Source: Clavelina lepadiformis
Taxonomy: Eukaryota; Chordata; Ascidiacea; Aplousobranchia; Clavelinidae
Reading direction: 5' to 3'
DNA: 64,000 bases
Assembly (NCBI RefSeq): GCF_947623445.1
Contig: NC_135244.1
Span: 4,154,001 to 4,218,000 of the forward strand
Shown: piece after piece, positions 14,387 to 40,148 of the stretch
How positions within the stretch are numbered: position 1 is the stretch's first letter
Layout: every line of letters begins with the position of its first letter
Notes under the pieces: generated by a model
Database searches by the model: none
Seen by the model: only the letters and a program-made list of their open reading frames with translations
Told to the model about the DNA's origin: nothing
Program-made: the position numbers and the translations under genes

Positions 14387-14673
14387 GTTCTTATCATAAC
14401 GCTCCTTCATCTTCAAACTATCAATCAGCAACTACATGACGACACCAATTGCAGAGCGCTACTAAAAAACAGCATGCTACAAATTTGGCCTATGATTACA
14501 ACTGAATGTTTGACTCTAGCAGTGCTCATTCGTCACGCTTCAATTAATTATTTGCAAACTTTGCCTGGAACTGCCACATAATCGTACCAGATTCAGCACT
14601 TTTCTTTAAAAACTTGGCATTCTACGCATTTTTATACGTACCGCTAATTGCCAAAATTAATGTATAGGCTTCG

Positions 14674-15073
14674 TATATAAACTCGTATGTCTGTGCAGAA
14701 ATTCATTTAGTTTAATTCATTCAGTTCGGTTTCATTTGCTTCAATACAAGTTTTATCAACGTTTCTCATTTGACTAAAAACGTCGGTTTATTTCCAGTGC
14801 TAGTCGAGAAGAGCACGGGGCCGTTACTGTAGTCAGATCATCTGGATACTGGAGTCAAGACTGGGCTGTCTCTCTCTCCTACGGCTTTTGGCGACGCCCT
14901 TTAAGCGTTTTCCAAGTCGCTTCTCAGTTTGCACTCTACACTTTCAGGAGCGTGTCCAGAGGATGCCTCGTTACGCTTGTGTTCGTCTTTCGCCACAGGC
15001 TATTGCAAATCAAGCGGCGTAGCCTACGTTTAACTGGGCCTAAATATCTGGAAAACTTTGTACAAAATAAATG
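14674..15073 (+). other. GC-richer block with TATA-like and AATAAA motifs, in both units
   Basis: A TATATAAAC motif at about 14675 is followed some 390 bases later by AATAAA at about 15066; between them is a GC-richer stretch that includes a small hairpin (CTAGTCGAGAAGAGCACGG area). The block is kept in unit 2 (about 27668-28054). It could be an RNA-producing unit or a fragment of a mobile element. It has no long open frame, and no function is assigned. Confidence 0.25.
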
Positions 15074-15492
15074 CTCACCCATTGTGCCTAGCACCAACTT
15101 GGACCAATGCCTCGTAATAAAGGTACAACCATAGAATGCTAAGGTTTAGTTACTTACGAAAACATCGTTCAAACAATAGCAGTATTCCGCAAGTATTAAG
15201 TGACCACGACGCATTAACTAAACTGTGCCTTTCATTTAATTATGGTGAATAAAGGGTATTTAGATTGCCTGGCCAACTGACCGATAACGGCTTTACGTTA
15301 GAAAACGATTTGATATTGAATGGTATATTATCCTGAACATTGGCAAAATATAGAACGAAACAGTGGGCTTATTATAAAAATAAAAGTCGACTTTTTTCCG
15401 AACTCTACATATAGTCACGCAAACACAGTGCTAGCAAAACAACAAAACAAAACAGCTTAGTTAAACACAGTTTGGAAAAATTCTCAATAAAC

Positions 15493-16263
15493 TCAATACA
15501 CAGTCCAGGTCACTTGCTTCAATTTCACGTTATCCGCTTCCAAAGTGCTTCGCAGCCTATCGGTCATTTTTGGACATCCGTGAATGAGTAAGATGTTGAT
15601 AGCCGGGCACATGCTCATTACGCCCTCTACCGATCGATCAGAAAGCTGCATGCAATGATTTATGTGCAGTTCTTTCAGCGCAAGTCGCGGTGAGCCTGCA
15701 CATAAGCTCAGGATTCCATCGTCGGTTACAGATGTGGCTGCAATATTAAGACATTCCAATCCGGGACACTTCGCAGCCAGAGCCTGCAGACTAGCATCGG
15801 AAATTTTCGTACAAGAGCCCAGGTTTAGCTGTTTTAGATTCGGGCAATTTTCTGCCAGCGCTCGCAGTGCCCCATCAGTAACATTGCAGCATCTTCTCAG
15901 ATAGACTGTCTGGAGCAAAGGGCAGCCTTTGGAGAGCGCTACCACACCGGCAGTTGTTACCTGGTCACGAAACCCTTTTACGGCATTCAAATCGACTTTT
16001 ACCAGTTGAATACACACTTGCGATATTTGCAGGAGTGACGCATCAGTGACGTCACATTCACTTAAATCTATTTCTCTCAGCTTTGGATAAAGCAGCAAGG
16101 TTATATTGACGTCATTGACCAGGCCCCTCTTGCATAGCAAATAGAGGAGTCTCCTTTTAATATTGGGGGGTACAGTGCTTATTGCGTTGCCGTATTTGGG
16201 CAAGTGCTTTGTGACGACATACATGCTGGCGTTCACCAGAGAATCAACGCAACCATACAACAT
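15493..16263 (-). CDS. AMN1: AMN1 homologue, copy 1
   Basis: A single-exon protein of 256 residues; human AMN1 is 258. The first ATG of the frame is at 16263; upstream in-frame codons contain only GTG, so this start is preferred. Leucine-rich repeats of the F-box/cysteine-containing type run through the protein (LREIDLSECDVTDASLLQIS, LKQLNLGSCTKISDASLQAL, LECLNIAATSVTDDGILSL). The end LKQVTWTVY is identical to vertebrate AMN1. Yeast Amn1 antagonises the mitotic exit network; the animal protein has the LRRs but no obvious F-box, and its role is poorly defined. The gene lies about 500 bp downstream of TUBD1 on the same strand, too far for a tight operon. Its copy at 28313-29092 differs at about 27 residues, far more than the neighbouring genes. 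Confidence 0.92.
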   Translation of the reverse strand: MLYGCVDSLVNASMYVVTKHLPKYGNAISTVPPNIKRRLLYLLCKRGLVNDVNITLLLYPKLREIDLSECDVTDASLLQISQVCIQLVKVDLNAVKGFRDQVTTAGVVALSKGCPLLQTVYLRRCCNVTDGALRALAENCPNLKQLNLGSCTKISDASLQALAAKCPGLECLNIAATSVTDDGILSLCAGSPRLALKELHINHCMQLSDRSVEGVMSMCPAINILLIHGCPKMTDRLRSTLEADNVKLKQVTWTVY

Positions 16264-16761
16264 TTTCCTTTCGTACACCCTAGTGCCTGCCTATCACCTA
16301 CTGAAAATAATGTTTTAAGGAAATGTAAAACAAAATTTTGTTAGTTGGATCTAAACGCAATGCATAGGTATAACAAAGTGTTGATAACAACGAAAAAAAT
16401 ACCACTTGCTCAAGCATAAAAACTGTCATATGAATATTATACAAAAGAAAAATAGATTTCACGACAGGTACAATTTGTTTTGAAACAATATTGAAAACAC
16501 TCATGAACTACGAAAGCGTTAGTTACAGAATTGCACTTGATAACGACTAACGTTATGGTCAAAAACGTACGCAATACGTATTTGCAACAACCTCCAACTA
16601 GGAGTGTATTACAGCTTCACCCTCTTTGCTCCATGACAAGACTGCAAGGATCGCATCAAACAATTCGGCTGTGACACGATTTCGTTATATAACATACACG
16701 TGCGAACATGACGTTTCATGTGTAATTTGGAGAAATACCAAAGACACACTTAACTGCATGG

Positions 16762-18111
16762 CTACAACTGTTTGTACGACGATATAACGTTCTCTATCGA
16801 AACAAATGCGTTTACAAAGTCATCTTCTTCCATACCGTTTTTGGTATATTGATGCAGGTAGGCCCGTGCCCCGTACATTTGCCACGCTTTACTCACCACG
16901 TCATCTAGCGGTTTTACGCAAGAGGTCCCATTGCTTAGCAACGCAACGCTTTTTTCTATCTTTTCAAAAGGTCGGTTGATCTTCCATATTGGACACCTGG
17001 CTGAAGCGGGAATCCAGGCAGGGTAAAGGACAGGATTCTGGAAATCTGGATTCTCGGACTCGGGAGGTGCAAGAGCTTGTTTTCCTCTCATCACTACTAA
17101 GTTGCTCACATAGCGCGGATGACGACCTGTGTTATAAGATGATGATACGGAGAGCTTCCGGTGCCAGTCCAATCCCTCATCCATGTAGAAATCAGTGATC
17201 ATCATCTGATAAATTCTCTTGATGAGGGAGTCCCAGGAAAAGGTGGAATAAGCGACACTTGCCTGCGCAACATGCGGAATGGATTTCAGGTCCAACATGG
17301 TGTACTGGCCATGACAGGCGGACGTGTAGACAATTTCGTTTAAAACGTTACGAAAGTTCATTGAAAGGTTACCATCTGACGAGAAAGTGACTGGTTGCAG
17401 TAATGATGCTAACTGTTTGGCAACAACACCGTTAACATCATTAAAAGACACATGTTTGATGCCCAAAAGTTTTTCGCAAATTCGATGGACGTGATCATTA
17501 TGCAGAAGAATACTTGCATCTGCGGTATCGCAAGTGTGCGCTAACGAAAGCAGTGCATTGTAGCTTTGAACAGCAACTTCACCTTCCGTGTAGGGGCATA
17601 CAACAGGGTTCAATATGGAAGCATGGGGAAAAGCGTCTCTTAATGACCCAGTTATGTATGAACCCAATCCCGATCCTGTTCCACCAGCCAGGCTGGAAAG
17701 CACAAGAAAACCTCCAAAGTGGTCACATTTTTCAACTTCATGTTGCACCATGTCCATGATAGGTTCCCTGCATTGAGGCGCGTGGACTTTATACCCGTAC
17801 GACCAATTATTTCCGGAACCACTTTTTTGACAAAATTGTCCTTCTTTTGGATAAGACCACCCTTTCCCTGACGTTCCTTGTAGGGCGAAGTTCACAGCTT
17901 TTGCTTCCATGTCAATCATAACCGATCGAGCTTCATGTTGTCCACTTTCAGCTTCCTGAAAGAACGTACTGAGTGAAGCATTCGTGTATTCCTCATTGGC
18001 ATTTGATGACACTATCGAAGATGAGTGTTTTGCATCGTCATGTAAAATGCTGAGTAAATGATGACCAAGCTGAGTTCCACATTGCCCCAACTGAACAGTC
18101 ACACATGCCAT
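16762..18111 (-). CDS. TUBD1: Delta-tubulin, copy 1
   Basis: An intronless 449-residue protein; human TUBD1 is 453. It starts MACVTVQLGQCGTQLG, with the tubulin N-terminal nucleotide site, and has the GTP signature GGTGSGLG at 143-150. Delta-specific stretches include FCQKSGSGNNWSYGY, LDLKSIPHVAQASVAYSTF and the C-terminal YLHQYTKNGMEEDDF. Family knowledge: delta-tubulin is needed with epsilon-tubulin for stable centriolar triplet microtubules and basal bodies. The vertebrate gene has many introns, so the single exon suggests an old retrocopy or intron loss. The ATG at 18111 is about 280 bp downstream of the zinc-finger stop. The copy at 29612-30961 differs at about 12 residues, none in the GTP signature. 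Confidence 0.96.
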   Translation of the reverse strand: MACVTVQLGQCGTQLGHHLLSILHDDAKHSSSIVSSNANEEYTNASLSTFFQEAESGQHEARSVMIDMEAKAVNFALQGTSGKGWSYPKEGQFCQKSGSGNNWSYGYKVHAPQCREPIMDMVQHEVEKCDHFGGFLVLSSLAGGTGSGLGSYITGSLRDAFPHASILNPVVCPYTEGEVAVQSYNALLSLAHTCDTADASILLHNDHVHRICEKLLGIKHVSFNDVNGVVAKQLASLLQPVTFSSDGNLSMNFRNVLNEIVYTSACHGQYTMLDLKSIPHVAQASVAYSTFSWDSLIKRIYQMMITDFYMDEGLDWHRKLSVSSSYNTGRHPRYVSNLVVMRGKQALAPPESENPDFQNPVLYPAWIPASARCPIWKINRPFEKIEKSVALLSNGTSCVKPLDDVVSKAWQMYGARAYLHQYTKNGMEEDDFVNAFVSIENVISSYKQL

Positions 18112-18388
18112 ACTGCAAAGTCACGAAGCCTTTACCCACAAAAACATTGACCTACCTCTGCATTGAAAACAAACTGTTATACAAAGTTATATTAAATTTA
18201 GAAGTTATTTGGATTATAAGAAATTTAAAAATGTATCATAAATATGGAAAAACCTGAAACTATTACAATGTAAATATTGAAATAACAAAGAACTAAAAAA
18301 AATGACATTCCACCAATGACAACAGGATACAATTCATACAGTTTTTTGAGCAAAATCAGTGTTTCGCTATCCATAACATTTCAGACCC

Positions 18389-21172
18389 TCAGGTCTTTGT
18401 ATGAGTTTTCATGTGAACACTTAGATTATATTTCTGTGTGAATCCCTTTTTACATATGTCACATTTAAATGGCCTTTCACCACTGTGGATCCTCTCATGT
18501 TTTGCTTTGCTGCACACTTTTCGAAAACTTTTCGGGCAAAACTTGCATTTGTAAGGCTTGGCGCCAGTGTGCAGAGTCATGTGTTCAGTCAAATTGCATC
18601 GACGGAGATAAGCGCGACCGCAAACTTCACAGACGAACGGCCGATCCCCAGTATGTGACCTAAGATGTTCTTTCAAACCTAAAGCAATTGTCTGATCATT
18701 TACAAAAAATGTCTGTGATCTGAATGCAATCTACGGTTTATAAGCTTGTGAATTTGAGCTGTAATGAGATTAGATATGCTGAGACAAAACCAGAAGTTAG
18801 ATCTGACTGAGATAAATTACTAGAGTTGAACAATGCCATGGTACACCCAATACCACTACCAATGTATTATACCTCTTAGTAACGTAAAAGATTTTCCACA
18901 TGTTTCACATATGTGTTTTTTTCCACGATGTGTTTCAGTGTGATTTTCCAAATCCTGTCTTTGCACAAATGATCTTCCGCAAGTTTCGCAAACAAAAGGC
19001 CTTTCACCAGTGTGTATACGTAAATGTAAACTCAAACTGTGACAACTGCAGAATGAAAACAAAAAAACTAATGATTAAACGATACATTTGACAAATAAGT
19101 AGTATTACCTGTAATGGGTTTAAGAATTGTGTGGAATAAAGAGTGGCATTAAAAATCACACAAAAAAGATAAAAAAATCTTTGCTTAACACTGAGTAAAA
19201 ATTATGCTATATGCCATTTTAAGAATATAAATACATGAACAGTACGGAAACAAGCAATATACCTTGAAAATGTTTTTCCACATTCACTACACGTCTTAGA
19301 CTTATCCTTACGATGAGTTTTAGCGTGTTGCTGTATGTCTGTATACTTTGTGAAGTTTTTTCCACACAGTTCACAGGAAAAGAGCTCCTATTGTCAAAAT
19401 TAAAACAGTTTAGAAACCAGTTTGCAATTAAATATTTATCATAACATGCACAAAAAATATATGAAAGATCCTAGTGACACTTCTATGTAACAAAAATTGC
19501 AAGGCACATTGTGCCACCTGTGCAAAGAATCTGAGCTCGAATGTGTCTTTGATAACTTCATATCATGAATATTAATACTATATATATTAGTACCTCTCTA
19601 CTAGTGTCTCCCTGCACTACTGAAACAAAATAAAAAGTGAATCAAAAGCAAATAATTACCACAACCACAAGCAAAAATTAATCACGGAAACAAAAAAATT
19701 TACATAAATCTGAGTACACTTTTATTGCATTTTCTAAAATATACCTTTGTCATCTCTTGCAAGGTGTTGAGTGCTTGTGGTTCTTTTCAAATTAGAGCCG
19801 ACATTAATAATTTGATTTTCTTTGGCAACACTAGATTTTATACCAGAAAGTGTAATAGAGTCATCTGTTTGTGTCCCAATTTCTACAAGCTGTGCTAAAG
19901 TATTACACAATTTAAGGTTCATTTTAAAAAGAAGGAATTTCACTTAGTGTTGTCGTTATAACAGTGGAAATTGTCACAGTGTAGTTCAGGGCTTCTCAAA
20001 GTTTTTTGCTCTGCGACTCCGTTTTAGAAATGAGATTTCTATGCGACCCCTTGATGGGTAGCCTACACGTTAAAGATATTAAAACAATAAATGTTCCATC
20101 AAAAATCCCAAGTGGTAGTTTTGTCTATGGCGAAATTATACAAATGCACACAATCCACGAAATTAACTGCATGGTAATAAAATCACCACATAATGGAAAC
20201 AGTAAAGTGAGCATCATAGTAAGAAATGAGCAAAAAAAAAATTATCTTTATAAAAGTTGAATTTCTGGCGGTTGCAACCCAAAGTTTGAAAAACACTGGT
20301 ATAGATAATAGATTACAACAAAGGTGTTGGTCAAAAGTACATTTTTCTTCATACATTATACTAACAAGGTAAAGACAGCAACAATTCCAAAGCAGCCGCT
20401 CGACTATCCAGTCTTAAACTGCTAACAAATTCATCCAAGCGTGAAATAAGGTCTTTTAAGTGATGAGTAAAATCTTTTTCCTGAACAAGCATCTGCCACT
20501 TGCTAAAGGCACATTTTCTTTTGAAGTAATAAATGTAACTGGATCTTTGTCTTCTGCAAAAAACAAGTATTATTCCCTTGCTTTTGTTACAATTGTATCT
20601 GTTTATTGAATATTCTAATTTTTATTTGCCATTATAACTTATTAAGGCTGAAATAATTTTATTAAGACCAGCTCTACTGATACAATGGTACACGTGGTGA
20701 TCTACTTCTAAATGGATCCAGTCCATTTTCATTTTTCCATGATGTATGAAGAAAAATGCAATGACAGTGAATGTAAACAAAACAAACTCAAATTGTTTTT
20801 GAACAGTTAAATGCACTCTAACCAAATTTTAATTTGACAAATGTCACAACTACTGTTCTACAAAGTCCTTTATGTAAGAATATCATGATACTAATAAGGC
20901 AAACATGTAGCAAAATGGCGCTGTACTTGAATGAAAATGAAGAAGTTTGAGTTGCTCAGGCTAAAAATTTTGATAACAATTTATCAACGAACAGTCTATA
21001 CACTAGATTAAATGCAGACTAAACAGCTTAAACATGAAAGATTCTGTCAAAAACTTGAAAGCACTAACTGCTTCAACAAGGTTTCCAAAGAGTGCAGCAG
21101 ATTTCCACCATAAGTTTCTTCAAAAGCTGCAACTACTTCCACAGGTGCATAACCAAAATCAATGGGTATCAT
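18389..21172 (-). CDS. Seven-finger C2H2 zinc-finger protein, copy 1
   Basis: Seven exons join in phase: 21069-21172, 20366-20553, 19745-19894, a 26-nt microexon 19594-19619, 19263-19387, 18873-19045 and 18389-18678. The product is about 351 residues from the ATG at 21172. Residues 1 to about 160 form an N-terminal region I do not recognise (MIPIDFGYAPVEVVAAFEE, SKWQMLVQEKDFTHHLKDLI), probably helical. Seven C2H2 fingers follow, most with TGERP-type linkers, the first being FSCELCGKNFTKYTDIQQHA and the last ending HMKTHTKT. Finger 2 is split by intron 5 and finger 4 by intron 6. This is likely a nuclear DNA-binding protein; the target is unknown and I recognise no orthologue. Intron 2 holds a hAT-like MITE (19987-20298). 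Exon 1 ends at a GTTAGT donor, which is GTGAGT in the other copy. Confidence 0.82.
19987..20298. mobile_element. hAT-like MITE in zinc-finger intron 2, unit 1
   Basis: It starts CAGGGCTTCTCAAAG and ends CAAAGTTTGAAAAACACTG, typical hAT-type inverted ends. The flanking octamers GTGTAGTT and GTATAGAT match at 6 of 8. It is present at the same place in unit 2 (32837-33148), so it predates the duplication. Confidence 0.72.
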
Positions 21173-24100
21173 GTTACAAAGTACAGTATCTTCGAGGCAA
21201 GTATGACCTGACTGTATATAGAGTTAGACTTGTGGCTGTGTGAATCTAACCAAACCAAATTAAAAAATAAATAAGCTTACGCACAGCTTAAAAAGAACTT
21301 TACCATGTCTTAAAACACTAAATTAGAATAACAAATAATGTATATGATTGCAATACTGAATTTTGAATAATATCTACCATTTGTGGAACCTACTTCTGCA
21401 CATTTTTCTGTGCTGACAAATGCATTTCTTGTGTTAAATTAAAATATTACAGCTCTGTAGGTTAAAAGAGCAGTAAGCAACAACAAAACAAGAGATTTAC
21501 ACAATTCACGTAACAAGAAACACCAGTATTAAGTTAGTACTTCTGGCAGTTGTGGGTTAAAATCTTGACACTGGGCAAAGAAAAACTTTACAGTACCACA
21601 CAACAGTCTTGTCATTTCAACCGTGTTTGTCCTAATTTTTTTTTGGAAACAAAAGTCTTGCCTTCTTCTTCACCAGCTCTGTGTTTTCAATAACAAAATT
21701 CAATTTTTAAATACTATGATGTTAGAGTACAACGTTTTGCCCATAGACAAAACGTTTGCGAACACCTTTTAATTTCCTTAATCCAGATTGCAAAGTTTAC
21801 TGTTTTTGGGTGAGATAACCCCAGCGCAACAAGATAAAACGACAGCCATTACAGGCATAATTAATCTTTACCCCCGGTACATTTAGCAATTTTCCAACCT
21901 GTGCCTCATTCGATTTTTACTTGACGAAATGAAAAATTTTGTTTTTGACAAGGAATCCTTTGCACCAATTTCCAGGGCAAAAAGGGTGTAGTTTTTCGGG
22001 AGAGGAATGAGTTCTTGCCAATTTTTTTAATTGTTTTAAGTAAAATTTTTGGCAAAAAGCTTCCTTCTTGGGAAGTTACTCCCCCGACTGCAGAGTATGT
22101 CACAAGCATACCGGAGATTTTTGGGTGCAAAACAGCTTGCACACCAGCTCACCACTTCACCAGGTTGTTTCACATTGCGACAACTGGTGGCTATTTTTGT
22201 CGTTTACAGGTGATAATGATGAAAGTATTACCTTAGCGCCTTCATGCAAATATAGTATATAACACGACATAGGAACTAGCGATATAGGCCTATTTATCAA
22301 ATACAAATTTCGCCTTTCGGTTTGGATTGCACTTTGCTATTAGGTAAGTTTTCAAGTACATGAAGTAGGATATCTGGTCACTTTGTTCGCCAGCACACCA
22401 TTTTGCACACCACGTATAGTTACTACACACCGGCTCACCGCAGCGATTGTCTTTGCCCAATGCCCACCGGAGATCTCATCGAAAAGTGGCATATTCTGCA
22501 GTCAGTCTTAGGCACTTAACAAACTTTAAAATTTGGGAATTCCCCAGTACAAAACTAAATTGAGACATTAATAAAGATAAACAACTTATATTTATTGTCA
22601 AGTTAAAAACATTTTAAAGAGAAAACAACTTCTTTTAAACCACTAAGATTTATCCAATCTAAGGTCATTTTATCCAAAAGTATTATTAATTGAAACGCGT
22701 TATTCAGGTTTGGTTAGTTATGAACGCTATTATAGTGCAAAACATTTTCCGCTTCCATGTATGACGTTTAACTTATGACGTTTCGTCACTTCTAACTATT
22801 GATAAATCGCCTTATTCAAATAGAATACTCCGGCAGCAACAGAATACACTTTTTTTTTATTCTTCTTCAGTCGCCCAACAACTCAAATTTTGGTAATCAC
22901 GTTTTTTATGCACTCGTTTTTTACTGTCTCTCCATCCACTCTCCCAGATTCGCAACCAAACCATCCGCTTTTTTTTAGCATAAATCCTTTTTTCGTTCGC
23001 TGTTCTCTTCAAACGTTGCATCAGCCTGGCCAAGTTTGACCTCTGACGTATTTGTTTTTCAATTTCCAACCAGTTCAATCAAGGTCATCATATTATCATT
23101 TCTGATGCAGATGTTTTTCTGCACGTATGCTATGACGTGACACAGAGTCACGTGGTTTGGTTGTCACACATGCAATAGACGGGGTTGATACACTTCAAGT
23201 TCATAAGGAACTATCGGTGTGATCGTCCAAACAACTTAAATTTATTCCAGTAAATTGATAGAAAACTTGGACATGGCAATCAATGCCGGATTTACAATGT
23301 AGCAAAAGTAACATTTGCTAGGGTCCCCGCGTTTTCGGGAACCCCTGCGCTAAAGCCTTCTTCTTGTAACAAAAAAAAAGAAAGAAAAAAGCAAAAACAT
23401 TATGAGAAGAATATAGTATATTGAATACAGTAACTCCCAACCATGGGTTCGTGGAAAAGTTGTAGGAGAGTTTTGTACCGATTTTTAGCAAAAATATGGT
23501 GGTGGTTGCATGGTGGAACAGAGTGTTTACTTTTTTAGGCCTTATGTTACAAATAGTACGGTACACCTGATGAAGTAAGCTAAAGTTTGAAAAGCCTCGT
23601 GTTGAATAGTTAAAACTTTATCTTTCAAATGCAACAATATTTTCTTCTTTTTTTTAGATACTGAATTTAACACGGTTCAGCCACCATCAACTTTAAATAT
23701 TTCATTTTAGGTCGCCTATTATCATAGCGCATGACAAAAAATTATTTGCTCTTTTATGGTGACTATATTTTTAAAACATAGCAATATAAACTTGTCTACG
23801 GAAATTATAAGTAGCCGAAATGATTTTTTGGAAATTTTTATCTATAAAAGGTGTGACGTAACCATCACAGTGATTTCTTTAATTACATGACGATGCTTGT
23901 ATTGGATTGGATATTTTTATCGTTACGTAAACTTTAAACTTACGTTTATATGTCGATTTAATAACTCCGACGGCTGAACCAAGAAAATAACTGGAAAATT
24001 AGTATGAGGTTATCTGACCATACGCAAGGCATTTCTAGGACAGCTAATAATTAATCAGCAATAATCACGCCTTGAGGTGAGACTCGTTATAGCATCGAGA

Positions 24101-24571
24101 AATAGCCATAAACATCACCAAACTTCACCGGTCATCTCGCACAGCTAAAGGAGTGACTGAAGTCGCCACCTGTTATACGTCCAGTAGCGCAGTATATATT
24201 ATTATTTGTTACAAATGTCCCGGGGCTTTAAAAATGCTAATCATAGTGTTCATAAAACAGCAAAATGTTGGAAAAGCCTCCTTGGAGAATTTACACGAAA
24301 AATATAATTACAAGTTAACATCCAGTCTTGCAAGGTGTCAAAAGTCAAAGCAATGCCATCGATTCCTTGTTATTTTGAATGATAAAACAACAAGAAAAAA
24401 AGAAAATGTAAAGCGGTTTGGTATGGTTGCATTCAAGATTATTTATCTATGTAACATTGGTCTATATATGGAATGCTTTCTGTCTATTTTTCAGCTCGTT
24501 ACCATTTTGAGCAAAAAGAAGGCTGGGCCAATAACACGTTGATTTGTTTGCTTAGCGAGGACGCTGTACAC
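21173..24571. other. Unit 1 non-coding stretch
   Basis: About 3.4 kb upstream of the zinc-finger gene with no supported coding exon. Short open frames are conserved in unit 2 only because the DNA is recent duplicate sequence. It includes the 413-bp segment 22760-23172 that is missing from unit 2. Confidence 0.45.
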
Positions 24572-25057
24572 CAGGGGTGTCAAACTCAATCAAACCAGGG
24601 GCCAAAACTCAAAACTTATTTAACGCCGCGGGCCGTACGGATAAAACTTGATTGAACGTTTCGTGAAACGAGTACATGAATTGAAACAGGCAGCGAAACA
24701 ACACCAAATTTTTGATGTTTTTGACGATTTTTGACTGGGCTATTTTTGATTATTTTTCTCTGACGTAATTATGTTTCATTCATCTCCTTGCAAAAGCATT
24801 AAAGAATTAACAAACAATAAAGAAAAAAAAGCAGCCCAGATTCCAAGCGTTAGAATAAATCTATTTATTCTATCGTATGATGGGGCAACTGCTGTGCTGC
24901 TGTACAGTATTGTGCGATTTGTTATAATCTTGTTTCTTGCTTAAAAAAAGTAAGTTATACTGTACAAAGATCTCGCGGGCCGGAAATAGTTCAATGTATA
25001 AAATAACATTGCGGGCTAAGTTTTATTGTAAAGCGGGCCGGGAGTTTGACACGTATG
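24572..25057. mobile_element. hAT-type MITE, CAGGGGTGTCAAACTC family, copy 2
   Basis: Same family as 1419-1898. Perfect 8-bp duplication CTGTACAC at 24564-24571 and 25058-25065. The same insertion is present in unit 2 (37420-37906), so it predates the duplication. Confidence 0.9.
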
Positions 25058-26030
25058 CTGTACACGTTTAGCCGGACAGATGAAGATGATACTGCAACAC
25101 GCCCAAACGTCAGAAATGCACAATTTTCCCGATAACAAAGTTGCGAATGACAAAATCCTGACTGTACCTATAGCATACTATACATTCAAGTTTCAACCAT
25201 CGGCATTGTATTAATTGTAGATTGTTGACGACGTCTGTAGTGTTATTTGCCATTTATATAACTACAAACATTTAATGAAGTATTCAAAATATTTCGGTCG
25301 TATTAATGCCTCGCATATTTTTTGTGCTACAGGCCCCAAACCAGCTTAATCCGGTCCTGATGAAAATTATTTATTTAATTGAAAATGTACTGCATGTGTG
25401 CAAAATAAAATATTAGATTCATTCACAACAATTAAAGTGCCTAAACTTTAACAAAGATCGACTAAATTGCTTTGACATAAAACTAGCGACAATTAAGCGT
25501 ATCAAAATGAGTCCTCGTAGAACCTTGCCATTATCATCAAAATGTTGATGCTATCAAGTTGCCCACAAATTCGGTTTGAGCTGATTAAAAATCTATTTGT
25601 CAAATAGGAGTTGACAATAACTTACTTAAACTTTAATATTACCAGCTCTGAAAATCAATTTTTACTGTATTTCTGCCTCGTTTAAACTGAAGGGCAAGTG
25701 CAAAAAACAAATTGATTTTATATGAAAGAACACCACTCACTAAATATTCTGCTAAAATAGTTTTGAGTAATAATTCTTGGCTAGGTAATAATCAGCAAAA
25801 GAAAATCGCAAAATTTGCTTAAATTGTGACGTTGATCAAGGCTCGTGTGATGCCATACGCAATCGCAGACAACATTCGCAAATTCATAAATTTAACAATA
25901 CCTACTGTATATCATGTATGTATCTGTTACAGCTGTATAGATTGCTCTAACTGCCAACAGATTGATAGATGACAGCCTATAGCCCAAGCACGGCAACTAG
26001 TACGGTACTGGTTTGAACGGTAGTCTATTC

Positions 26031-29092: not shown

Positions 29093-29611
29093 TTTGTCTT
29101 GCGTACACCCTAGAGCCTGCCTATCACCTGCTGAAAATAATGTTTTAAGGAAATGTAAAACAAAATTTTGTTAGTTTGATCTAAACGTAATGCATAGGTA
29201 TGACAAGCGGAAAGTGTTGATAACAACGAAAAACCACCACGTGCTCAAGAATAAAAACTGTCATATGAACATTATACAAAAGGAAAATAGATTTCACGAC
29301 AAGTCCAATTTGTTTTGAAACAATATTGAAAACACTCATGAACTACGAAAGCGCTAGTTACAGAATTGCACTTGATAACGACTAACGTTATGGTCAAAAA
29401 CTTACGCAATACGTATTTGCAACAACCTCCAACTAGGAGTGTATTATAAAAAGGTGTAGTACAGCTTCACCCTCTTTGCTTCATGACAAAACTGCAAGGA
29501 TCGCATCCAACAATTAGCTTGTGACACGATTTCGTTATATAAAATACGCGTGCGAACATGACGTTTCATGTGTAATTTGGAGAAATACCAAAGACACACT
29601 TAACTGCATGG

Positions 29612-30961
29612 CTACAACTGTTTGTACGACGATATAACGTTCTCTATCGAAACAAATGCGTTTACAAAGTCATCTTCTTCCATACCGTTCTTGGTATATT
29701 GATGCAGGTAGGCCCGTGCCCCGTACATTTGCCACGCTTTACTCACCACGTCATCTAGCGGTTTGACGCAAGAGGTCCCATTGCTTAGCAACGCAACGCT
29801 TTTTTCTATCTTTTCAAAAGGTCGGTTGATCTTCCATATTGGACACCTGGCTGAAGCGGGAATCCAGGCAGGGTAAAGGACAGGATTCTGGAAATCTGGA
29901 TTCTCGGACTCGAGAGGTGCAAGAGCTTGTTTTCCTCTCATCACTACTAAGTTGCTCACGTAGCGCGGATGACGACCTGTGTTATAAGATGTTGATGCGG
30001 AAAGCTTCCGGTGCCAGTCCAATCCCTCGTCCATGTAGAAATCAGTGATCATCATCTGATAAATTCTCTTCATGAGGGAGTCCCAGGAAAAGGTGGAATA
30101 AGCGACACTTGCCTGCGCAACATGCGGAATGGATTTAAGGTCCAGCATGGTGTACTGGCCATGACAGGCTGACGTGTAGACAATTTCGTTTAAAACATTA
30201 CGAAAGTTCATTGACGGGTTACCATCTGACGAGAAAGTGACTGGTTGCAGTAATGATGCTAAATGTTTGGCAACAACACCGTTAACATCATTAAAAGACA
30301 CATGTTTGATGCCCAAAAGTTTTTCGCAAATTCGATGGATGTGATCATTATGCAGAAGAATACTTGCATCTGAGGTATCGCAAGTGTGCGCTAACGAAAG
30401 CAGTGCATTGTAGCTTTGAACAGCAACTTCACCTTCCGTGTAGGGGCCTACAACAGGGTTCAATATGGAAGCATGGGGAAAAGCGTCTCTTAATGACCCA
30501 GTTATGTATGAACCCAATCCCGATCCTGTCCCACCAGCCAGGCTGGAAAGCACAAGAAAACCTCCAAAGTGGTCACATTTCTCAACTTCATGTTGCACCA
30601 TGTCCATGATAGGTTCCCTGCATTGAGGCGCGTGGACTTTATACCCGTACGACCAATTATTTCCGGAACCACTTTTTTGACAAAATTGTCCTTCTTTTGG
30701 ATAAGACCACCCTTTCCCTGACGTTCCTTGTAGGGCGCAGTTCACAGCTTTTGCCTCCATGTCAATCATAACCGATCGAGCTTCATGTTGTCCACTTCTA
30801 GCTTCCTGAAAGAACGTACTGAGTGAAGCATTCGTGTATTCCTCATTGGCATTTGATGACACTATCGAAGATGAGTGTTTTGCATCGTCATGTAAAATGC
30901 TGAGTAAATGATGACCAAGCTGAGTTCCACATTGCCCCAACTGAACAGTCAAACATGCCAT
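29612..30961 (-). CDS. TUBD1: Delta-tubulin, copy 2
   Basis: An intronless 449-residue paralogue of the gene at 16762-18111. The GTP signature GGTGSGLG, FCQKSGSGNNW and the C-terminal YLHQYTKNGMEEDDF are unchanged. About 12 residues differ (MACLTVQ for MACVTVQ, NPVVGPY for NPVVCPY, AKHLASL for AKQLASL), with a similar number of silent changes. Both copies therefore look functional and under constraint. The upstream 270 bp to the zinc-finger stop is also nearly identical to unit 1, so the two genes probably share regulation. Confidence 0.96.
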   Translation of the reverse strand: MACLTVQLGQCGTQLGHHLLSILHDDAKHSSSIVSSNANEEYTNASLSTFFQEARSGQHEARSVMIDMEAKAVNCALQGTSGKGWSYPKEGQFCQKSGSGNNWSYGYKVHAPQCREPIMDMVQHEVEKCDHFGGFLVLSSLAGGTGSGLGSYITGSLRDAFPHASILNPVVGPYTEGEVAVQSYNALLSLAHTCDTSDASILLHNDHIHRICEKLLGIKHVSFNDVNGVVAKHLASLLQPVTFSSDGNPSMNFRNVLNEIVYTSACHGQYTMLDLKSIPHVAQASVAYSTFSWDSLMKRIYQMMITDFYMDEGLDWHRKLSASTSYNTGRHPRYVSNLVVMRGKQALAPLESENPDFQNPVLYPAWIPASARCPIWKINRPFEKIEKSVALLSNGTSCVKPLDDVVSKAWQMYGARAYLHQYTKNGMEEDDFVNAFVSIENVISSYKQL

Positions 30962-31238
30962 ACTGCAAAGTCACGAAGCCTTTACCCACAAAAACATTGA
31001 CCTACCTCTGCATTGAAAACAAACTGTTATACAAAGTTATATTAAATTTAGAAGTTATTTGGATTATAAGAAATTTAAAAATGTGTCAAAAATATGGAAA
31101 AACCTGAAACTATTACAATGTAAATATTGAAATAACAAAGAACTAAAAAAAATGACATTCCACCAATGACAACAGGATACAATTCATACAGTTTTTTGAG
31201 CAAAATCAGTGTTTCGCTATTCACAACATTTCAGACCC

Positions 31239-33931
31239 TCAGGTCTTTGTATGAGTTTTCATGTGAACACTTAGATTATATTTCTGTGTGAATCCCTTTT
31301 TACATATGTCACATTTAAATGGCCTTTCACCACTGTGGATCCTCTCATGTTTTGTTTTGCTGCACACTTTTCGAAAACTTTTCGGGCAAAACTTGCATTT
31401 GTAAGGCTTGGCGCCAGTATGTAGAGTCATGTGTTCAGTCAAATTGCATCGGCGGAGATAAGCGCGACCGCAAACTTCACAGACGAACGGCCGATCCCCA
31501 GTATGTGACCTAAGATGTTCTTTCAAACCTAAAGCAATTGTCTGATCATTTACAAAAAATTTCTGTGATCTGAATGCAATCTACGGTTTATAAGCTTGTG
31601 AATTTGAGCTGTAATGAGATTAGATATGCTGAGACAAAACCAGAAGTTAGATCTGACTGAGATAAATTACTAGAGTTGAACAATGCCATGGTACACCCAA
31701 TACCACTACCAATGTATTATACCTCTTAGTAACGTAAACGATTTTCCACATGTTTCACATATGTGTTTTTTTCCACGATGTGTTTCAGTGTGATTTTCCA
31801 AATCCTGTCTTTGCACAAATGATCTTCCGCAAGTTTCGCAAACAAAAGGCCTTTCACCAGTGTGTATACGTGAATGTAAACTCAAACTGTGACAACTGCA
31901 GAATAAAAACAAAAAAAATAGTGATTAAACTATACATTTGACAAATAAGTAGTATTACCCGTAATGGGTTGAAGAATTGTGTGGAATAAAGAGTGGCATT
32001 AAAAATCACACAAAAAAGATAAAAAATCTTTGCTTAACACAAAGTAAAAATTATGCTATATGCCATTTTAAGAATATCAATACATCTACAGTATGGAAAC
32101 AAGCAATATACCTTGAAAATGTTTTTCCACATTCACTACACGTCTTAGACTTATCCTTACGATGAGTTTTAGCGTGTTGCTGTATGTCTGTATACTTCGT
32201 GAAGTTTTTTCCACACAGTTCACAGGAAAAGAGCTCCTATTGTCAAAAACAAAACAGTTTAGAAACCAGTTTGCAATTAAATATTTATCAAAACATGCAC
32301 GAAAAATATATGAAAGATCCTAGTGACACTTCTATGTAACAAAAATTGCAAGGCACATTGTGCCACCTGTGCAAAGAATCTGAGCTCGAATGTGTCTTTG
32401 ATAACTTCATATCATGAATATTAATACTATGTATATTAGTACCTCTCTACTAGTGTCTCCCTGCACTACTGAAACAAAATAAAAAGTGAATCAAAAGCAA
32501 ATAATTACCACAACAACAAGCAAAAATTAATCACGGAAACAAAAAAAATTTACATAAATCTGAGTACACTTTTATTGCATTTTCTAAAATATACCTTTGT
32601 CATCTCTTGCAAGGTGTTGAGTGCTTGTGGTTCTTTTCAAATTAGAGCCGACAATAATAATTTGATTTTCTTTGGCAACACTAGATTTTATACCAGAAAG
32701 TGTAATAGAGTCATCTGTTTGTGTCCCAATTTCCACAAGCTGTGCTAAAGTATTACACGATTTAAGGTTCATTTTAAAAAGAAGGAATTTCACTTAGTGT
32801 TGTCGTTATAACAATGGAAATTGTCACAGTGTAGTTCAGGGCTTCTCAAACTTTTTTGCTCTGCGACTCCGTTTTAGAAATGAGATTTCTATACGACCCC
32901 TTGATGGGTAGCCTACACGTTAACGATTTTAAAACAATAAATGTTCCATCACAAATCTCAAGTGGTAGTTTTGTCTATGGCGAAATTATACAAATGCACA
33001 CAATCCACGAAATTAACTGCACAGTAATAAAAGAACCACATAAAGAAAACAGTATAAGTGAGCATCATAGTAAGAAATGAGCAAAAAAAAATTATCTTTA
33101 TAAAAGTTGAATTTATGGCGGTTGCAACCCAAAGTTTGAAAAACACTGGTATAGATAATAGATTACAACAAAGGTGTTGGGCAAAAGTACAATTTTCTTC
33201 ATACATTATACTAACAAGGTAAAGACAGCAACAATTCCAAAGCAGCCGCTCGACTATCCAGTCTTAAACTGCTAACAAATTCATTCAAGCGTGAAATAAG
33301 GTCTTTTAAGTGATGAGTAAAATCTTTTTCCTGAACAAGCATCTGCCACTTGCTAAAGGCACATTTTCTTTTGAAGTAATAATTGTAACTGGATCTTTGT
33401 CTTCTGCAAAAAACAAAAATATTCCCTTGCTTTTGTTACAATTGTATCTGTCTATTGAATATTCTAATTTGAATATTGAATATTCTAATTCTAATATTCT
33501 ATTGAATTTGCCATTATAACTTATTAAGGCTGAAATAATTTTATTAAGACCAGCTCTACTGATACAATGGTACACGTGGTCATCTACTTCTAAATGGATC
33601 CAGTCCATTTTCATTTTTCCATGATGTATGAAGAAAAATGCAATGACAGTGAATGTAAACTAAACAAACTCAAATTGTTTTCAGTTAAATGCACTCTAAC
33701 CAAATTTTAATTTGAAAAATGTCACAACTACTGTTCTACAAAGTTCTTTATGTAAGAATATCATGATACTAATAAGGCAAGCATGTAGCAAAAACAGGTT
33801 TAAAAACCTAGCAAAAACAGCACTCACTGGTTCAACAAGGTTTCCAAAGAGTGCAGCAGATTTCCACCATAAGTTTCTTCAAAAGCTGCAACTACTTCCA
33901 CAGGTGCATAACCAAAATCAATGGGTATCAT
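31239..33931 (-). CDS. Seven-finger C2H2 zinc-finger protein, copy 2
   Basis: The same seven-exon structure as the unit 1 copy: 33828-33931, 33216-33403, 32595-32744, 32443-32468 (26-nt microexon), 32112-32236, 31723-31895 and 31239-31528. All exon lengths and phases are identical to copy 1, and every zinc ligand is kept. Replacements are few (SKTKHERIH for SKAKHERIH, SSYNYYF for SSYIYYF, SLHSRIH for SLHLRIH). The exon 1 donor is GTGAGT, stronger than GTTAGT in copy 1. The DNA just upstream of that donor differs between units through local deletion, and copy 1 has extra intron sequence there. The N-terminal region is unrecognised, as in copy 1. Confidence 0.82.
32837..33148. mobile_element. 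hAT-like MITE in zinc-finger intron 2, unit 2
   Basis: Duplicate of 19987-20298 with the same ends (CAGGGCTTCTCAAAC and GTTTGAAAAACACTG) and the same flanks. Confidence 0.72.
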
Positions 33932-36900
33932 GTTACAAAGTACAGTATCTTCGAGGCAAGTATGACCTGACTGTATATAGAGTTAGACTTGTGGCTGTGT
34001 GAATCTAACCAAACCAAATTAAAAAATAAATAAGCTTACGCACAGCTTAAAAAGAACTTTACCATGTCTTAAAACACTAAATTAGAATAACAAATAATGT
34101 ATATGATTGCATTACTAAATTTAGAATAATATCTACCATTTGTGGAACCTACTTCTGCACATTTTTCTGTGCTGACAAATGCATTTCTTGTGTTAAATTA
34201 AAATATTACAGCTATGTAGGTTAAAAGAGCAGTAAGCAACAACAAAACAAGAGATTTACACAATTCACGTAACAAGAAACACCAGTATTAAGTTAGTACT
34301 TCTGGCAGTTGTGGGTTAAAATCTTGACACTGGGCAAAGAAAAACTTTACAGTACCACACAACAGTCTTGTCATTTCAACCGTGTTTGTCCTAATTTTTT
34401 TTTGGAAACAAAAGTCTTGCCTTCTTCTTCACCAGCTCTGTGTTTTCAATAACAAAATTCAATTTTTAAATACTATGATGTTAGAGTACAACGTTTTGCC
34501 CATAGACAAAACGTTTGCGAACACCTTTTAATTTCCTTAATCCAGATTGCAAAGTTTACTGTTTTTGGGTGGGAAAACCCCAGCGCAACAAGATAAAACG
34601 ACAGCCATTACAGGCATAATTAATCTTTACCCCCGGTACATTTAGCAATTTTCCAACCTGTGCCTCATTCGATTTTTACTTGACGAAATGAAAAATTTTG
34701 TTTTTGACAAGGAATCCTTTGCACCAATTTCCAGGGCAAAAAGGGTGTAGTTTTTCGGGAGAGGAATGAGTTCTTGCCAATTTTTTTAATTGTTTTAAGT
34801 AAAATTTTTGGCAAAAAGCTTTCTTCTTGGGAAGTTACTCCCCAGACTGCAGAGTATGTCACAAGCATACCGGAGATTTTTGGGTGCAAAACAGCTTGCA
34901 CACCAGCTCACCACTTCACCAGGTTGTTTCACATTGCGACAACTGGTGGCTATTTTTGTCGTTTACAGGTGATAATGATGAAAGTATTACCTTAGCGCCT
35001 TCATGCAAATACAGTATATAACACGACATAGGAACTAGCGATATAGGCCTATTTATCAAATACAAATTTCGCCTTTCGGTTTGGATTGCTCTTTGCTATT
35101 AGGTAAGTTTTCAAGTACATGAAGTAGGATATCTGGACAGTTTGTTCGCCAGCACACCATTTTGCACACCACGTATAGTTGCTGCACACCGGCTCACCGC
35201 AGCGATTGTCTTTGCCCACCGGAGATCTCATCGAAAAGTGGCATATTCTGCAGTCAGTCTTAGGCACTTAACAAACTTTAAAATTTGGGAATTCCCCAGT
35301 ACAAAACTAAATTGAGACATTAATAAAGATAAACAACTTATATTTATTGTCAAGTTAAAAACATTTTAAAGAGAAAACAACTTCTTTTGAACCACTAAGA
35401 TTTATCCAATCTAAGGTCATTTTATCCAAAAGTATTATTAATTGAAGCGCGTTATTCAGGTCTGGTTAGTTATGAACGCTAATATAGTGCAAAACATTTT
35501 CCGCTTCCATGCAATAGACGGGGTTGATACACTTCAAATTCATAAGGAACTATCGGTGTGATCGTCCAAACAACTTAAATTTATTCCAGTAAATTGATAG
35601 AAAACTTGGACATGGCAATCAATGCCGGATTTACAATGTAGCAAAAGTAACATTTGCTAGGGTCCCCGCGTTTTCGGGAACCCCTGCGCTAAAGCCTTCT
35701 TCTTGTAACAAAAAAAAAGAAAGAAAACGGCAAAAACATTATGAGAAGAATATAGTACAGGGGTGGCCAGACCTGCTTGATGCTCGAGCCGCATATGACA
35801 AATTCCAGTTTTAAAAGAGCCACAACACAAACAAAATAAAAAACACGAATTTATTCACTCACAACGAAGTGTAGCTATTTGATAAACATAAGTGCTGCGT
35901 GGTGATACTATGAGGCTCCACCTGGGCTTCACCAACTCTTTTTGCAATTATTAGTATAACCATAACCAAGACTTAAAACTAGGTCAACCCTGACTTACAG
36001 CTTCAATCTGACAGTTTACTTAACTACAGTGTACAAGTTAGCACACTTCTATACAATAATGTACTTTTTGGAGTGTAATTTGATTATTACTAACAATGAG
36101 TCCATTGTTACTACGTGTGATAGAACGCATTGTTTCATAATCTGATCAAACAACTCGTCTAGACCGGGAAAATGCATGTCTAGTAATCTAGTTCAACAAT
36201 GCTAATTCATTAAAGAGCCGCAATCAAAGGCTCAAAGAGCCGCAGTTTGGCCACCCCTGATATAGTATATTGAATACAGTAACTCCCAACCATGGGTTCG
36301 TGGAAAAGTTGTAGGAGAGTTTTGTACCAATTTTTAGCAAAAATATGGTGGTGGTTGCATGGTGGCACAGAGTGTTTACTTTTTTAGGCCTTATGTTACA
36401 AATAGTACGGTACACCTGATGAAGTAAGCTAAAGTTTGAAAAGCCTCGTGTTGAATAGTTAAAACTTTATCTTTCAAATGCAACAATATTTTCTTCTTTT
36501 TTTTAGATACTGAATTTAACACGCTTCAGCCACCATCAACTTTAAATATTTCATTTTAGGTCGCCTATTATCATACCGCATGACAAAAATTCATTTGCTC
36601 TTCAGTGGTGACTATATTTTTAAAACATAGCAATATAAACTTGTCTACGGAAATTATAAGTAGCCGAAATGATTTTTTGGAAATTTTTATCAATAAAAGG
36701 TGTGACGTAACCATCACAGTGATTGCTTTAATTACATGACGATGCTCGTATTGGATTGGATATTTTTATCGTTACGTAAACTTTAAACTTACGTTTATAT
36801 GTTGATTTAATAACTCCGACGGCCGAGCCAAGAAAATAACTGGAAAATTAATATGAGGTTATCTGACCATACGCAAGGCATTTCTAGGACAGCTAATAAT

Positions 36901-37419
36901 CAGCAATAATCACGTCTTGAGATGAGACTCGTTATAGTATTGAGAAATAGCTATAAACATCACCAAACTTCACCGGTCATCTCGCACGGCTAAAGGAGTG
37001 ACTGAAGTCGCCAACTGTTATACGTCCAGTAGCGCAGTATACATTATTATTTGTTACAAATGTCCCGGGGCTTTAAAAATGCTAATCATATAGGTCTAGT
37101 GTTCATAAAACAGCAAAATATTGGAAAAGCCTCCTGGGAGAATTTACACGAAAAATATAATTGCAAGTTAACATCAAGTCCTGCAAGGTGAAGTCAAAGC
37201 AATGCCATCGATTGCTTGTAATTTTGAATGATAAACAACAAGAAAAAAAGCAAATTTAAAGCGGTCTGGTATGGTTGCATTCAAGATTATTTATCTAAGT
37301 AACATTGGTCTATATATGGAATGCTTTCTGTCTAGTTCTCAGCTCGTTACCATTTTGAGCAAAAAGAAGGCTGGGCCAATAACACGTTGATTTGTTTGCT
37401 TAGCGAGGACGCTGTACAC
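33932..37419. other. Unit 2 non-coding stretch
   Basis: Counterpart of 21173-24571. No supported gene. The only new content is the hAT element at 35758-36259. The 413-bp segment of unit 1 is missing at the junction at 35511. Confidence 0.45.
35758..36259. mobile_element. Young hAT-type MITE specific to unit 2
   Basis: A 502-bp element starting CAGGGGTGGCCAGACCTG and ending CAGTTTGGCCACCCCTG. A perfect 8-bp duplication ATATAGTA sits at 35750-35757 and 36260-36267. Unit 1 has the empty site with a single ATATAGTA near 23410. The insertion therefore happened after the segmental duplication. No transposase is present. Confidence 0.95.
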
Positions 37420-37906
37420 CAGGGGTGTCAAACTCAATCGAACCAGGGGCCAAAACTCAAAACTTATTTAACGCCGCAGGCCGTAAGGATAAAACTTGAT
37501 TGAACGTTTCGTGACACGAGTACATGAATTGAAACAAGCAGCGAAACAACACCAAATTTTTGATGTTTTTGACGATTTTTGACTGGGCTATTTTTGATAA
37601 TTTTTCTCTTACGTAATTATGTTTCATTCATCTCCTTGCAAAAGCATTAAAGAATTAACAAACAATAAAGAAAAAAAAGCAGCCCAGATTCCAAGCGTTA
37701 GAATAAATCTATTTATTCTATCGTACGACTACGATGGGGCAACCGCTGTGCTGCTGTATTGTGCGATTTGTTATAATCTTGTTTCTTGCTTAAAAAAAGT
37801 AAGTTATACTGTACAAAGATCTCGCGGGCCGGAAATAGTTCAATGTATAAAATAACATTGCGGGCTAAGTTTTATTGTAAAGCGGGCCGGGATTTTGACA
37901 CGTATG
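37420..37906. mobile_element. hAT-type MITE, CAGGGGTGTCAAACTC family, copy 3
   Basis: Duplicate of 24572-25057 with the same CTGTACAC target duplication (37412-37419 and 37907-37914). Confidence 0.9.
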
Positions 37907-38887
37907 CTGTACACGTTTAGCCGGACAGATGAAGATGATACTGCAACACGCCCAAACGTCAGAAATGAACAATTTTCCCGATAACAAAGTTGCGAATGAC
38001 AAAATCCTGACTGTACCTATAACATACTATACATTCAAGTTTCAAACATCGGCATTGTATTAATTGTAGATTGTTGACGACGTCTGTAGTGTTATTTGCC
38101 ATTTGCTAAAATACCGGTTTATATAACTACAAACATTTATTGAACTATTCAAAATATTTTGGTCGTATTAATGCCTGGCATATTTTTTGTGCTACAGGCC
38201 ACAAACCAGCTCCGGTCCTGATGAAAATTATTTATTTAATTGAAAATGTACTGCATGTGTGCAAAATAAAATATTAGATTCATTCACAACAATTAAAGTG
38301 CCTAAACTTTAACAAAGATCGACTAAATTGCTTTGACATAAAACTAGCGACGAACGTATCAAAATGAGCCCTCGTAGAACCTTGTCATTATCATCAAAAT
38401 GTTGATGCTGTCACGTTGCCCACAAATTCGGTTTGAGCTGATTAAAAATCTATTTGTCAAATAGGAGTTGACAATAACCTACTTAAACTTTAATATTACC
38501 AGTTCTGATAATCATTTTTTACTGTATTTTTGCCTCGTTTAAACTGAAGGGCAAGTGCAAAAAACAAATTGATTTTATATGAAAGAACACTACTCACTGA
38601 ATATTCTGCTAAAATAGTTTTGAGTAATAATTCTTGGCTAGGTAATAATCAGCAAAAGAAAATCGCTAAATTTGCTTAAATTGTGACGTTGATCAAGGCT
38701 CGTGTGATGCCATACGCAATCGCAGACAACATTCGCAAATTCATAAATTTAACAATACCTACTGTATATCATGTATGTATCTGTTACAGCTGTATAGATT
38801 GCTCTAACTGCCAACAGATTGATAGATGACAGCCTATAGCCCAAGCACGGCAACTAGTACGGTACTGGTTTGAACGGTAGTCTATTC

Positions 38888-39216
38888 CAGTGTTTCCTAA
38901 TCTTTCTAACAACGGAGGACCGGTAAAGATTTTTAACAAAATGTTCACGGACCGGCAACAAAAGATCATAGTGAATAGAACAGACATGTGTAATATTTTT
39001 CTTTATCAAAGTTGTCGTTACGTTTGCGGTATCAACGAAGCCAAGATGCGCCAGTTTTACTGCTGTGAATCGGCCAGGCGTAAAATGAGTTTTGCAGGGA
39101 GTAACAACTTTGCAATGCTTATGAGTCCATATTAAAACTAGCTTGGGAAAAAGCAAGATAGGCCTACTATGTAGACCGGCAAAAAAATTCCACAGACCGG
39201 CAGTTTGGAACCACTG
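38888..39216. mobile_element. hAT-like MITE with GGACCGG ends, unit 2
   Basis: Duplicate of 26031-26388, shorter by about 30 bp because one of two adjacent GACCGGTAAAGATTTT repeats near the left end is missing. Confidence 0.8.
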
Positions 39217-39974
39217 GTCTATGCAGTCCAAAAGATACCGTAACTTCACGGACGCAAAGGATTGGGCAAGAGGATTTTATATTTAAAACAATCGTAATTT
39301 AGTCACTTAGAATGCTTCACATTGCTAATTTCTTAACACGACGCCTAATTAGACATAGGCTAAACTTCTATAACCTACACTTTTAACTTCAATTGATTAC
39401 CGCGCAAGAAAAACAACAGCAGCAGCTTGTTGTCAAGCAACTTGACTAATGTATGACATCACAAGACATCTACGTCACAAAGAAGGTCAAAACCTGAGAC
39501 TTTTTGCGATTTTCTTTTGCTGATAACTACGAAATATTTTTCAAAAATATTTTACCAGAATGTTCAGTTAATAGTGCTCTTTCATATAAGATCAACTTGT
39601 TTTTAGACTTCCCCTCACTAAGTTATAAAATTACCTATATTAATCGGCGATACGTTGATTAAAGTAACAATCGTCATAGTCCAGAAAAACAGCCTTTGTT
39701 GTTGAAACACTTTGCTTATTTTCATGCAAAATATCGTGAGAGAAGTGTACAACGATTTGAACAGAAATAGCGTAAACGTAAGGTAGATATTTAACTGATG
39801 TTATCAAAAAAAACTTATCACAATTTGGTGGGAAGCAATATGTCATGCAATTTGAAAGCAGTTGTAGACCATCAATGCCAATCAAGTACAGAATTCGCTG
39901 CCTGCAGCAGGAGTATCACAGCGTGGGCTGATGACTACTTGCCGTATAGAACAAATGTGTAAAGTTGGCCTATG

Positions 39975-40148
39975 CAGTGGCGTAGCCAGAAAAAAATTGG
40001 GGGGGGGCCAAATGTTTCATTAGTTCAAGGGAACTACAAAGTGTTTGTTTTAAGACACCGCCACCTGATGTAGAAGCCTATAAACACAAAAATTTGGGGG
40101 GCTATGGCCCCTTTCGCCCCCCCCCCCCCCCCCCCGGCTACGCCTAAG
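39975..40148. mobile_element. hAT-like element with G/C homopolymer tracts, complete copy
   Basis: It starts CAGTGGCGTAGCCAG and ends GGCTACGCCTAAG; the inner ten bases of the ends are inverted repeats. The right flank CAAGTATG (40149-40156) matches the left flank of the truncated partner at 27137-27144. The left flank here is disrupted by a short insertion. It contains a run of about 19 C. Confidence 0.78.

What the first reader, a model, noticed from the sequence alone, without database searches (positions are those of the whole stretch)
14596..40049. Recent 12.5-kb direct tandem duplication of a zinc-finger/TUBD1/AMN1 block
Unit 1 (14596-27220) and unit 2 (27588-40049) carry the same three genes in the same order and strand, with the same exon lengths and phases, and match almost base for base outside a few indels. 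All six genes look intact. Two delta-tubulin genes in one haploid genome would be unusual, since most animals have one. It could also be uncollapsed haplotype sequence in an assembly, but the distinct flanks, the junction spacer and the breakpoint inside a transposon argue for a real tandem event.
Basis: seen in the sequence. Interest (0 to 1): 0.75.

Follow-up and report, generated by a model that had tools for sequence, protein, structure and literature searches.

The report
Tandem-duplicated delta-tubulin gene block
In what appears to be a sea squirt chromosome, a 12.5-kb block with three genes, one of them like the centriole protein delta-tubulin, sits twice in a row with both copies apparently intact; it is most likely an ordinary real gene duplication, though not brand new.

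Summary
In detail: 14595-27220 and 27587-40049 are direct repeats, each with a C2H2 zinc-finger gene, a single-exon delta-tubulin-like gene and a single-exon AMN1-like gene on the minus strand. "Almost base for base" is too strong: identity is 97.2% over 11,814 aligned bases, in blocks of 5.7%, 1.75% and 3.0% divergence, and each unit has a private transposon-like insert. Contig lengths point to the ascidian Clavelina lepadiformis: C4 is 25,070,715 bp, exactly the published scaffold N50. I judge it a real segmental tandem duplication (about 0.85): no N in the window, and the 366-bp spacer matches neither flank. No reads or alternate haplotype could be examined, so an artefact or a one-haplotype variant is not excluded. 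It is not very recent: silent divergence is 3-5% in the zinc-finger and tubulin genes and 9.5% in AMN1, best read as an older duplication partly homogenised by gene conversion. The tubulin and zinc-finger pairs show purifying selection; AMN1 is diverging. An ordinary kind of event on an unusual target gene.

The parts
14595..27220 (.). Unit 1 of the direct tandem duplication
   Evidence: Self-BLAST; alignment
27221..27586 (.). 366-bp junction spacer, not similar to either outer flank
   Evidence: local scores 12 (left) and 13 (right) against means of about 13 over 300 window stretches; BLAST against the window finds only itself
27587..40049 (.). Unit 2 of the direct tandem duplication
   Evidence: Self-BLAST; alignment
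15493..16263 (-). AMN1-like leucine-rich-repeat gene, unit 1, single open frame, 256 aa, stop included in the coordinates
   Evidence: Pfam LRR_4/LRR_6; 112 of 255 aligned residues equal to recalled human AMN1
28313..29092 (-). AMN1-like gene, unit 2, 259 aa, stop included
   Evidence: Pfam LRR; 106 residues equal to recalled human AMN1
16762..18111 (-). Delta-tubulin-like (TUBD1) gene, unit 1, single exon, 449 aa, stop included
   Evidence: Pfam Tubulin E 9.8e-45; 195 of 444 aligned residues equal to recalled human TUBD1
29612..30961 (-). Delta-tubulin-like (TUBD1) gene, unit 2, single exon, 449 aa, stop included
   Evidence: Pfam Tubulin E 1.1e-44; 194 residues equal to recalled human TUBD1
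18389..20492 (-). C2H2 zinc-finger gene with several introns, unit 1; 5' end approximate
   Evidence: Pfam zf-C2H2 on three exon pieces; exon reading
31239..33342 (-). C2H2 zinc-finger gene, unit 2; 5' end approximate, by alignment with unit 1; not scanned against Pfam
22760..23168 (.). Insert private to unit 1, flanked by a 4-bp CATG duplication; empty site in unit 2
35758..36259 (.). hAT-like insert private to unit 2 (TIR CAGGGGTGGCCA, 8-bp duplication ATATAGTA); empty site in unit 1
14595..16698 (.). High-divergence segment of unit 1 (5.7% against unit 2), covering AMN1
   Evidence: change-point segmentation
16699..23726 (.). Low-divergence segment (1.75%), covering delta-tubulin and zinc-finger genes; candidate gene-conversion tract
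   Evidence: overdispersion reached by 0 of 5000 shuffles

Best explanation
A 12.5-kb segment holding a zinc-finger gene, delta-tubulin and AMN1 was duplicated head to tail on contig C5 of an assembly that fits the ascidian Clavelina lepadiformis. Shown: two collinear copies, an unrelated 366-bp junction spacer, private inserts, open reading frames. Inferred: the duplication predates the silent divergence now seen in the tubulin part. Later gene conversion or unequal exchange re-homogenised about 7 kb around delta-tubulin and the zinc-finger gene, while the AMN1 end went on diverging. Both delta-tubulin copies are kept by purifying selection as near-redundant genes, probably acting as extra dosage of the triplet-microtubule factor; AMN1 of unit 2 looks like the faster-changing copy. 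The confidence given is for a real, older tandem duplication with open genes; the conversion step alone I hold at about 0.7 and the dosage role is a guess.
For: Collinear direct repeat. No N in 64,000 bases, so no scaffold gap at the junction. Spacer matches neither flank, whereas an end-to-end join of two haplotypes predicts that it matches one of them. No third copy seen of a 2-kb piece of unit 1 (20000-22000): of 41 matches, 3 lie in the two units and the other 38 cover only the first roughly 290 bases, a dispersed repeat (the best 40 of 384 candidates were scored). Assembly from 117-fold HiFi, hifiasm and purge_dups, BUSCO duplicated 0.6% (PMC10884593, parts 1-2 of 3 read). Selection: TUBD1 dS 0.045, dN 0.0125, Fisher p 0.0014; zinc finger dS 0.032, dN 0.008, p 0.023. 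AMN1 dS 0.095, dN 0.051, p 0.066. Mosaic divergence. In AMN1, 10 of the 14 substitutions where exactly one copy matches the recalled human residue match unit 1 (16 more match neither, and the three inserted residues of unit 2 are left out).
Against: No read depth, spanning reads, Hi-C map or alternate haplotype was available. Divergence of about 3% may be within what very polymorphic tunicates show between alleles (PMC4122922 passages, speak of extreme heterozygosity in Ciona savignyi); no figure for Clavelina was found (listing of 12 of 79 papers). Mosaic divergence, private inserts and purifying selection are also expected between alleles. Ko et al. say that false copies are sometimes joined without an N gap. 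For delta-tubulin the outgroup comparison shows no clear asymmetry (3 differences match unit 1, 2 match unit 2, 7 neither). Searches of the own genome with the tubulin and AMN1 proteins and with the junction DNA did not complete, so a count of exactly two delta-tubulin genes rests on the Pfam search, whose other matches were not typed.
Confidence: 0.8

Rival explanations
1. False heterotype duplication: the two haplotypes of one single-copy locus were laid end to end by the assembler.
For: About 3% divergence, patchy, with private inserts, as between alleles of a polymorphic tunicate (passages for tunicate polymorphism). The curators themselves removed 9 haplotypic duplications. Ko et al. note that false copies are sometimes connected without an N gap, across a read-depth gap (PMC9516828 passages), which cannot be seen here.
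Against: No N gap between the copies, the commonest mark in Ko et al. (window 0 N). The spacer is homologous to neither flank. 28 replacement changes at 27 residues in 250 aligned AMN1 codons would be a lot for alleles. BUSCO duplicated only 0.6%.
Confidence: 0.12
2. Real but polymorphic: the tandem duplication exists on only one of the two haplotypes of the sequenced animal (copy-number variant). This is a form of the real reading, not exclusive of it.
For: Ko et al. describe an allele-specific tandem duplication in one contig at haploid depth (PMC9516828 passages). Nothing here tests fixation.
Against: Silent divergence of 3-10% and two private inserts suggest an age long enough for fixation, but this is weak.
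Confidence: 0.25
3. Old duplication without gene conversion: the AMN1 end differs only because of relaxed or positive selection or a higher mutation rate there.
For: AMN1 has excess replacement changes against TUBD1 plus zinc finger (28/571 against 19/1785 sites, p 1.9e-7).
Against: Non-coding DNA beside AMN1 is also more diverged (4.8% and 5.3% against 1.2% upstream of the zinc-finger gene), and silent sites too (p 0.017), so the effect is regional; that speaks against selection on AMN1 alone but not against a regional mutation rate.
Confidence: 0.2

Closest known systems
Segmental tandem duplication of multi-gene blocks in animal genomes
   Same: Direct, adjacent, collinear copies with whole genes and patchy divergence compatible with partial homogenisation
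   Different: Nothing structural; the target genes, delta-tubulin above all, are usually single-copy (recalled, not surveyed here)
False heterotype duplication (Ko et al. 2022, PMC9516828; passages seen)
   Same: Two adjacent diverged copies in a haploid assembly of an animal that may be heterozygous
   Different: No N gap, and the junction spacer is unrelated to the flanks; depth untested
Delta-tubulin (TUBD1), needed like TUBE1 for centriole triplet microtubules in human cells (PMC5653238; passages seen)
   Same: Tubulin GTPase domain, full length, 195 and 194 of 444 aligned residues equal to recalled human TUBD1
   Different: Two copies in one haploid assembly; single exon

Membership tests
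True segmental tandem duplication | Two adjacent, collinear copies in direct orientation | tested here: met
True segmental tandem duplication | Junction that is not explained by joining the flanks of one locus | tested here: met
True segmental tandem duplication | Spanning long reads and diploid depth over both copies | not testable with these tools
   no reads held
False heterotype duplication | Assembly gap between the copies (commonest, not universal) | tested here: not met
   0 N in the window; the mark, and its exceptions, are from PMC9516828 passages
False heterotype duplication | Half depth and one-copy k-mers | not testable with these tools
   no reads held
Delta-tubulin | Tubulin GTPase domain over the N-terminal half | tested here: met
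   Pfam E 9.8e-45 and 1.1e-44
Delta-tubulin | Closer to delta than to alpha, beta, gamma or epsilon tubulin | tested here: inconclusive
AMN1 | Leucine-rich repeats and AMN1-like C-terminus | tested here: met

The most novel reading that the evidence does not exclude
Clavelina lepadiformis keeps two functional delta-tubulin genes in a conversion-homogenised tandem array while the linked AMN1 pair is splitting in function, giving a natural test of delta-tubulin dosage in an animal.
Probability: 0.25. Interest if true: 0.45.

Novelty: new member of a known kind. Interest (0 to 1): 0.28.

Why it matters
If real and fixed, it is an animal with two delta-tubulin genes, where the dosage of the delta/epsilon partnership that makes centriole triplets could be asked about. 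It is also a tidy case of patchy divergence after tandem duplication. If it is a haplotype artefact, it is a warning against counting this gene pair as an expansion. Either way the kind of event is ordinary.

Tried and rejected
"Almost base for base": rejected by the measured 97.2% identity and the private inserts. "Breakpoint inside a transposon": not established; near it, only a repeat about 430 bp inside the unit was found, by a search of the 12 fetched loci. Mitochondrial COX1 as a species marker: no match in the assembly, so species identity rests on contig lengths against the genome note. Rfam and tRNA scans of the window: nothing. Literature for delta-tubulin duplicates: a search with six phrases found 0 papers; three broader searches (5 of 5, 12 of 200 and 12 of 29 papers listed) showed none about it in the titles and abstract openings. 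That covers the held open-access library only. Searches for a Clavelina heterozygosity figure and on tandem duplication in ascidians gave nothing used here. AMN1 pair aligned; no structure was predicted, since it would not decide between the readings.

Exon-intron structure of the zinc-finger gene was read by eye; five exon pieces were compared, and its first exon and a short possible intron near 18700 stay uncertain. dN and dS are Nei-Gojobori values from small counts (TUBD1 13 silent and 13 replacement; zinc finger 6 and 6; AMN1 16 and 28). The residue list for AMN1 ran one codon past the stop, so its 28 entries are 27 residues; the dN and dS counts there stop before it. The non-coding set still holds two short zinc-finger exons.
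Full report
WHAT IS THERE. Self-comparison of the window joins 14595-27220 to 27587-40049 in direct orientation through five collinear matches. Over the 11,814 columns aligned in those five segments, 327 differ (97.23% identity) and 207 further columns are gaps; with the inserts forced in, a global alignment gives 94.2%. Both units carry, in the same order on the minus strand, a C2H2 zinc-finger gene with introns, a single-exon delta-tubulin-like gene (449 aa) and a single-exon AMN1-like gene (256 and 259 aa). No stop or frameshift private to one copy was seen in the two single-exon genes or in the five zinc-finger exon pieces compared; the AMN1 starts differ by an indel that leaves the frame open.

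WHERE IT IS. The window is C5:4154001-4218000 of a 209,060,895-base assembly in 95 contigs. C4 has 25,070,715 bases, the exact scaffold N50 given for Clavelina lepadiformis kaClaLepa1.1, and C5 (24,617,235) and C6 (20,771,506) fit its table of chromosomes (PMC10884593, parts 1 and 2 of 3 read). Against an exact match: C1 and C2 are slightly shorter than published (28,783,666 against 28,789,166; 26,529,800 against 26.54 Mb), the total is about 1 Mb less and there are 95 sequences instead of 102; a revised or filtered release is my guess. The species is inferred from lengths, not from a sequence match.

REAL OR ARTEFACT. For a real tandem: the window has no N; a 2-kb piece of unit 1 was found only in the two units, apart from a dispersed repeat in its first roughly 290 bases (41 matches, 3 of them in the units; best 40 of 384 candidates scored); and the 366-bp spacer matches neither the left nor the right flank (local scores 12 and 13, which 261 and 188 of 300 control stretches reach or exceed, the few controls overlapping the spacer being scored zero). 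Two haplotypes laid end to end should leave at the junction sequence related to one of the flanks. Ko et al. 2022 give gaps between copies as a main mark of false duplications, beside half depth and one-copy k-mers, and add that the copies are sometimes joined across a read-depth gap instead (PMC9516828 passages). The N gap is absent here; the other marks could not be tested. Against: about 3% divergence with patchiness and private inserts is also what two alleles of a polymorphic tunicate could show (PMC4122922 passages). I put a real tandem at about 0.85, including the case that it is present on one haplotype only.

AGE AND MOSAIC. Divergence falls into 110/1922, 113/6461 and 104/3431 mismatches, and mismatches outside the listed coding stretches, in 250-base bins, are overdispersed (index 2.37; 0 of 5000 shuffles reach it). 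Silent divergence is 0.045 for delta-tubulin, 0.032 for the zinc finger and 0.095 for AMN1. Each unit has one private insert with a target-site duplication and an empty site in the other unit; the unit-2 insert has hAT-like ends (the hAT label is recalled, from its terminal repeats and 8-bp duplication). Gene conversion over the middle is the simplest reading of the mosaic, but it is inferred.

SELECTION. Replacement changes are rarer per site than silent ones in delta-tubulin (13/1051 against 13/296 sites, p 0.0014) and the zinc finger (6/734 against 6/193, p 0.023), less clearly in AMN1 (28/571 against 16/179, p 0.066). These tests do not separate paralogs from alleles.

WHAT IT DOES. Human cells without delta- or epsilon-tubulin have centrioles that lack triplet microtubules (PMC5653238 passages). 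Two near-identical delta copies most likely act redundantly or add dosage; no expression data were examined. Whether exactly two delta-tubulin genes exist rests on the Pfam search (52 exon-level matches, two of them the copies in this window); the others were not typed one by one, and the direct protein search did not complete.

VERDICT. A well-supported but ordinary tandem duplication of an unusual gene, older and more diverged than first described, with the artefact rival reduced but open until reads or the alternate haplotype are examined.

Noticed in passing
window 16762-18111 and 15493-16263, with copies in unit 2: Delta-tubulin and AMN1 are both single open frames here, and in unit 1 each start codon is preceded by a splice-acceptor-like stretch (AMN1 in both units), compatible with spliced-leader trans-splicing or an unseen 5' exon.
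   Followed up: no
window about 20000-20290: Dispersed repeat upstream of a zinc-finger exon, aligned between both units, with 38 further matches listed in the own genome (a lower bound).
   Followed up: partly
G000:C5:17467343-17468221 and 17471000-17471878: Two tubulin genes about 3.7 kb apart with near-identical Pfam scores, which look like another tandem pair.
   Followed up: no
window 53037-53981, minus strand: DnaJ protein gene in a single open frame of 314 aa with DnaJ and DnaJ_C domains.
   Followed up: no
window 1418-1864: Repeat 88% identical to 24571-25041 and 37419-37890 inside the two units.
   Followed up: no
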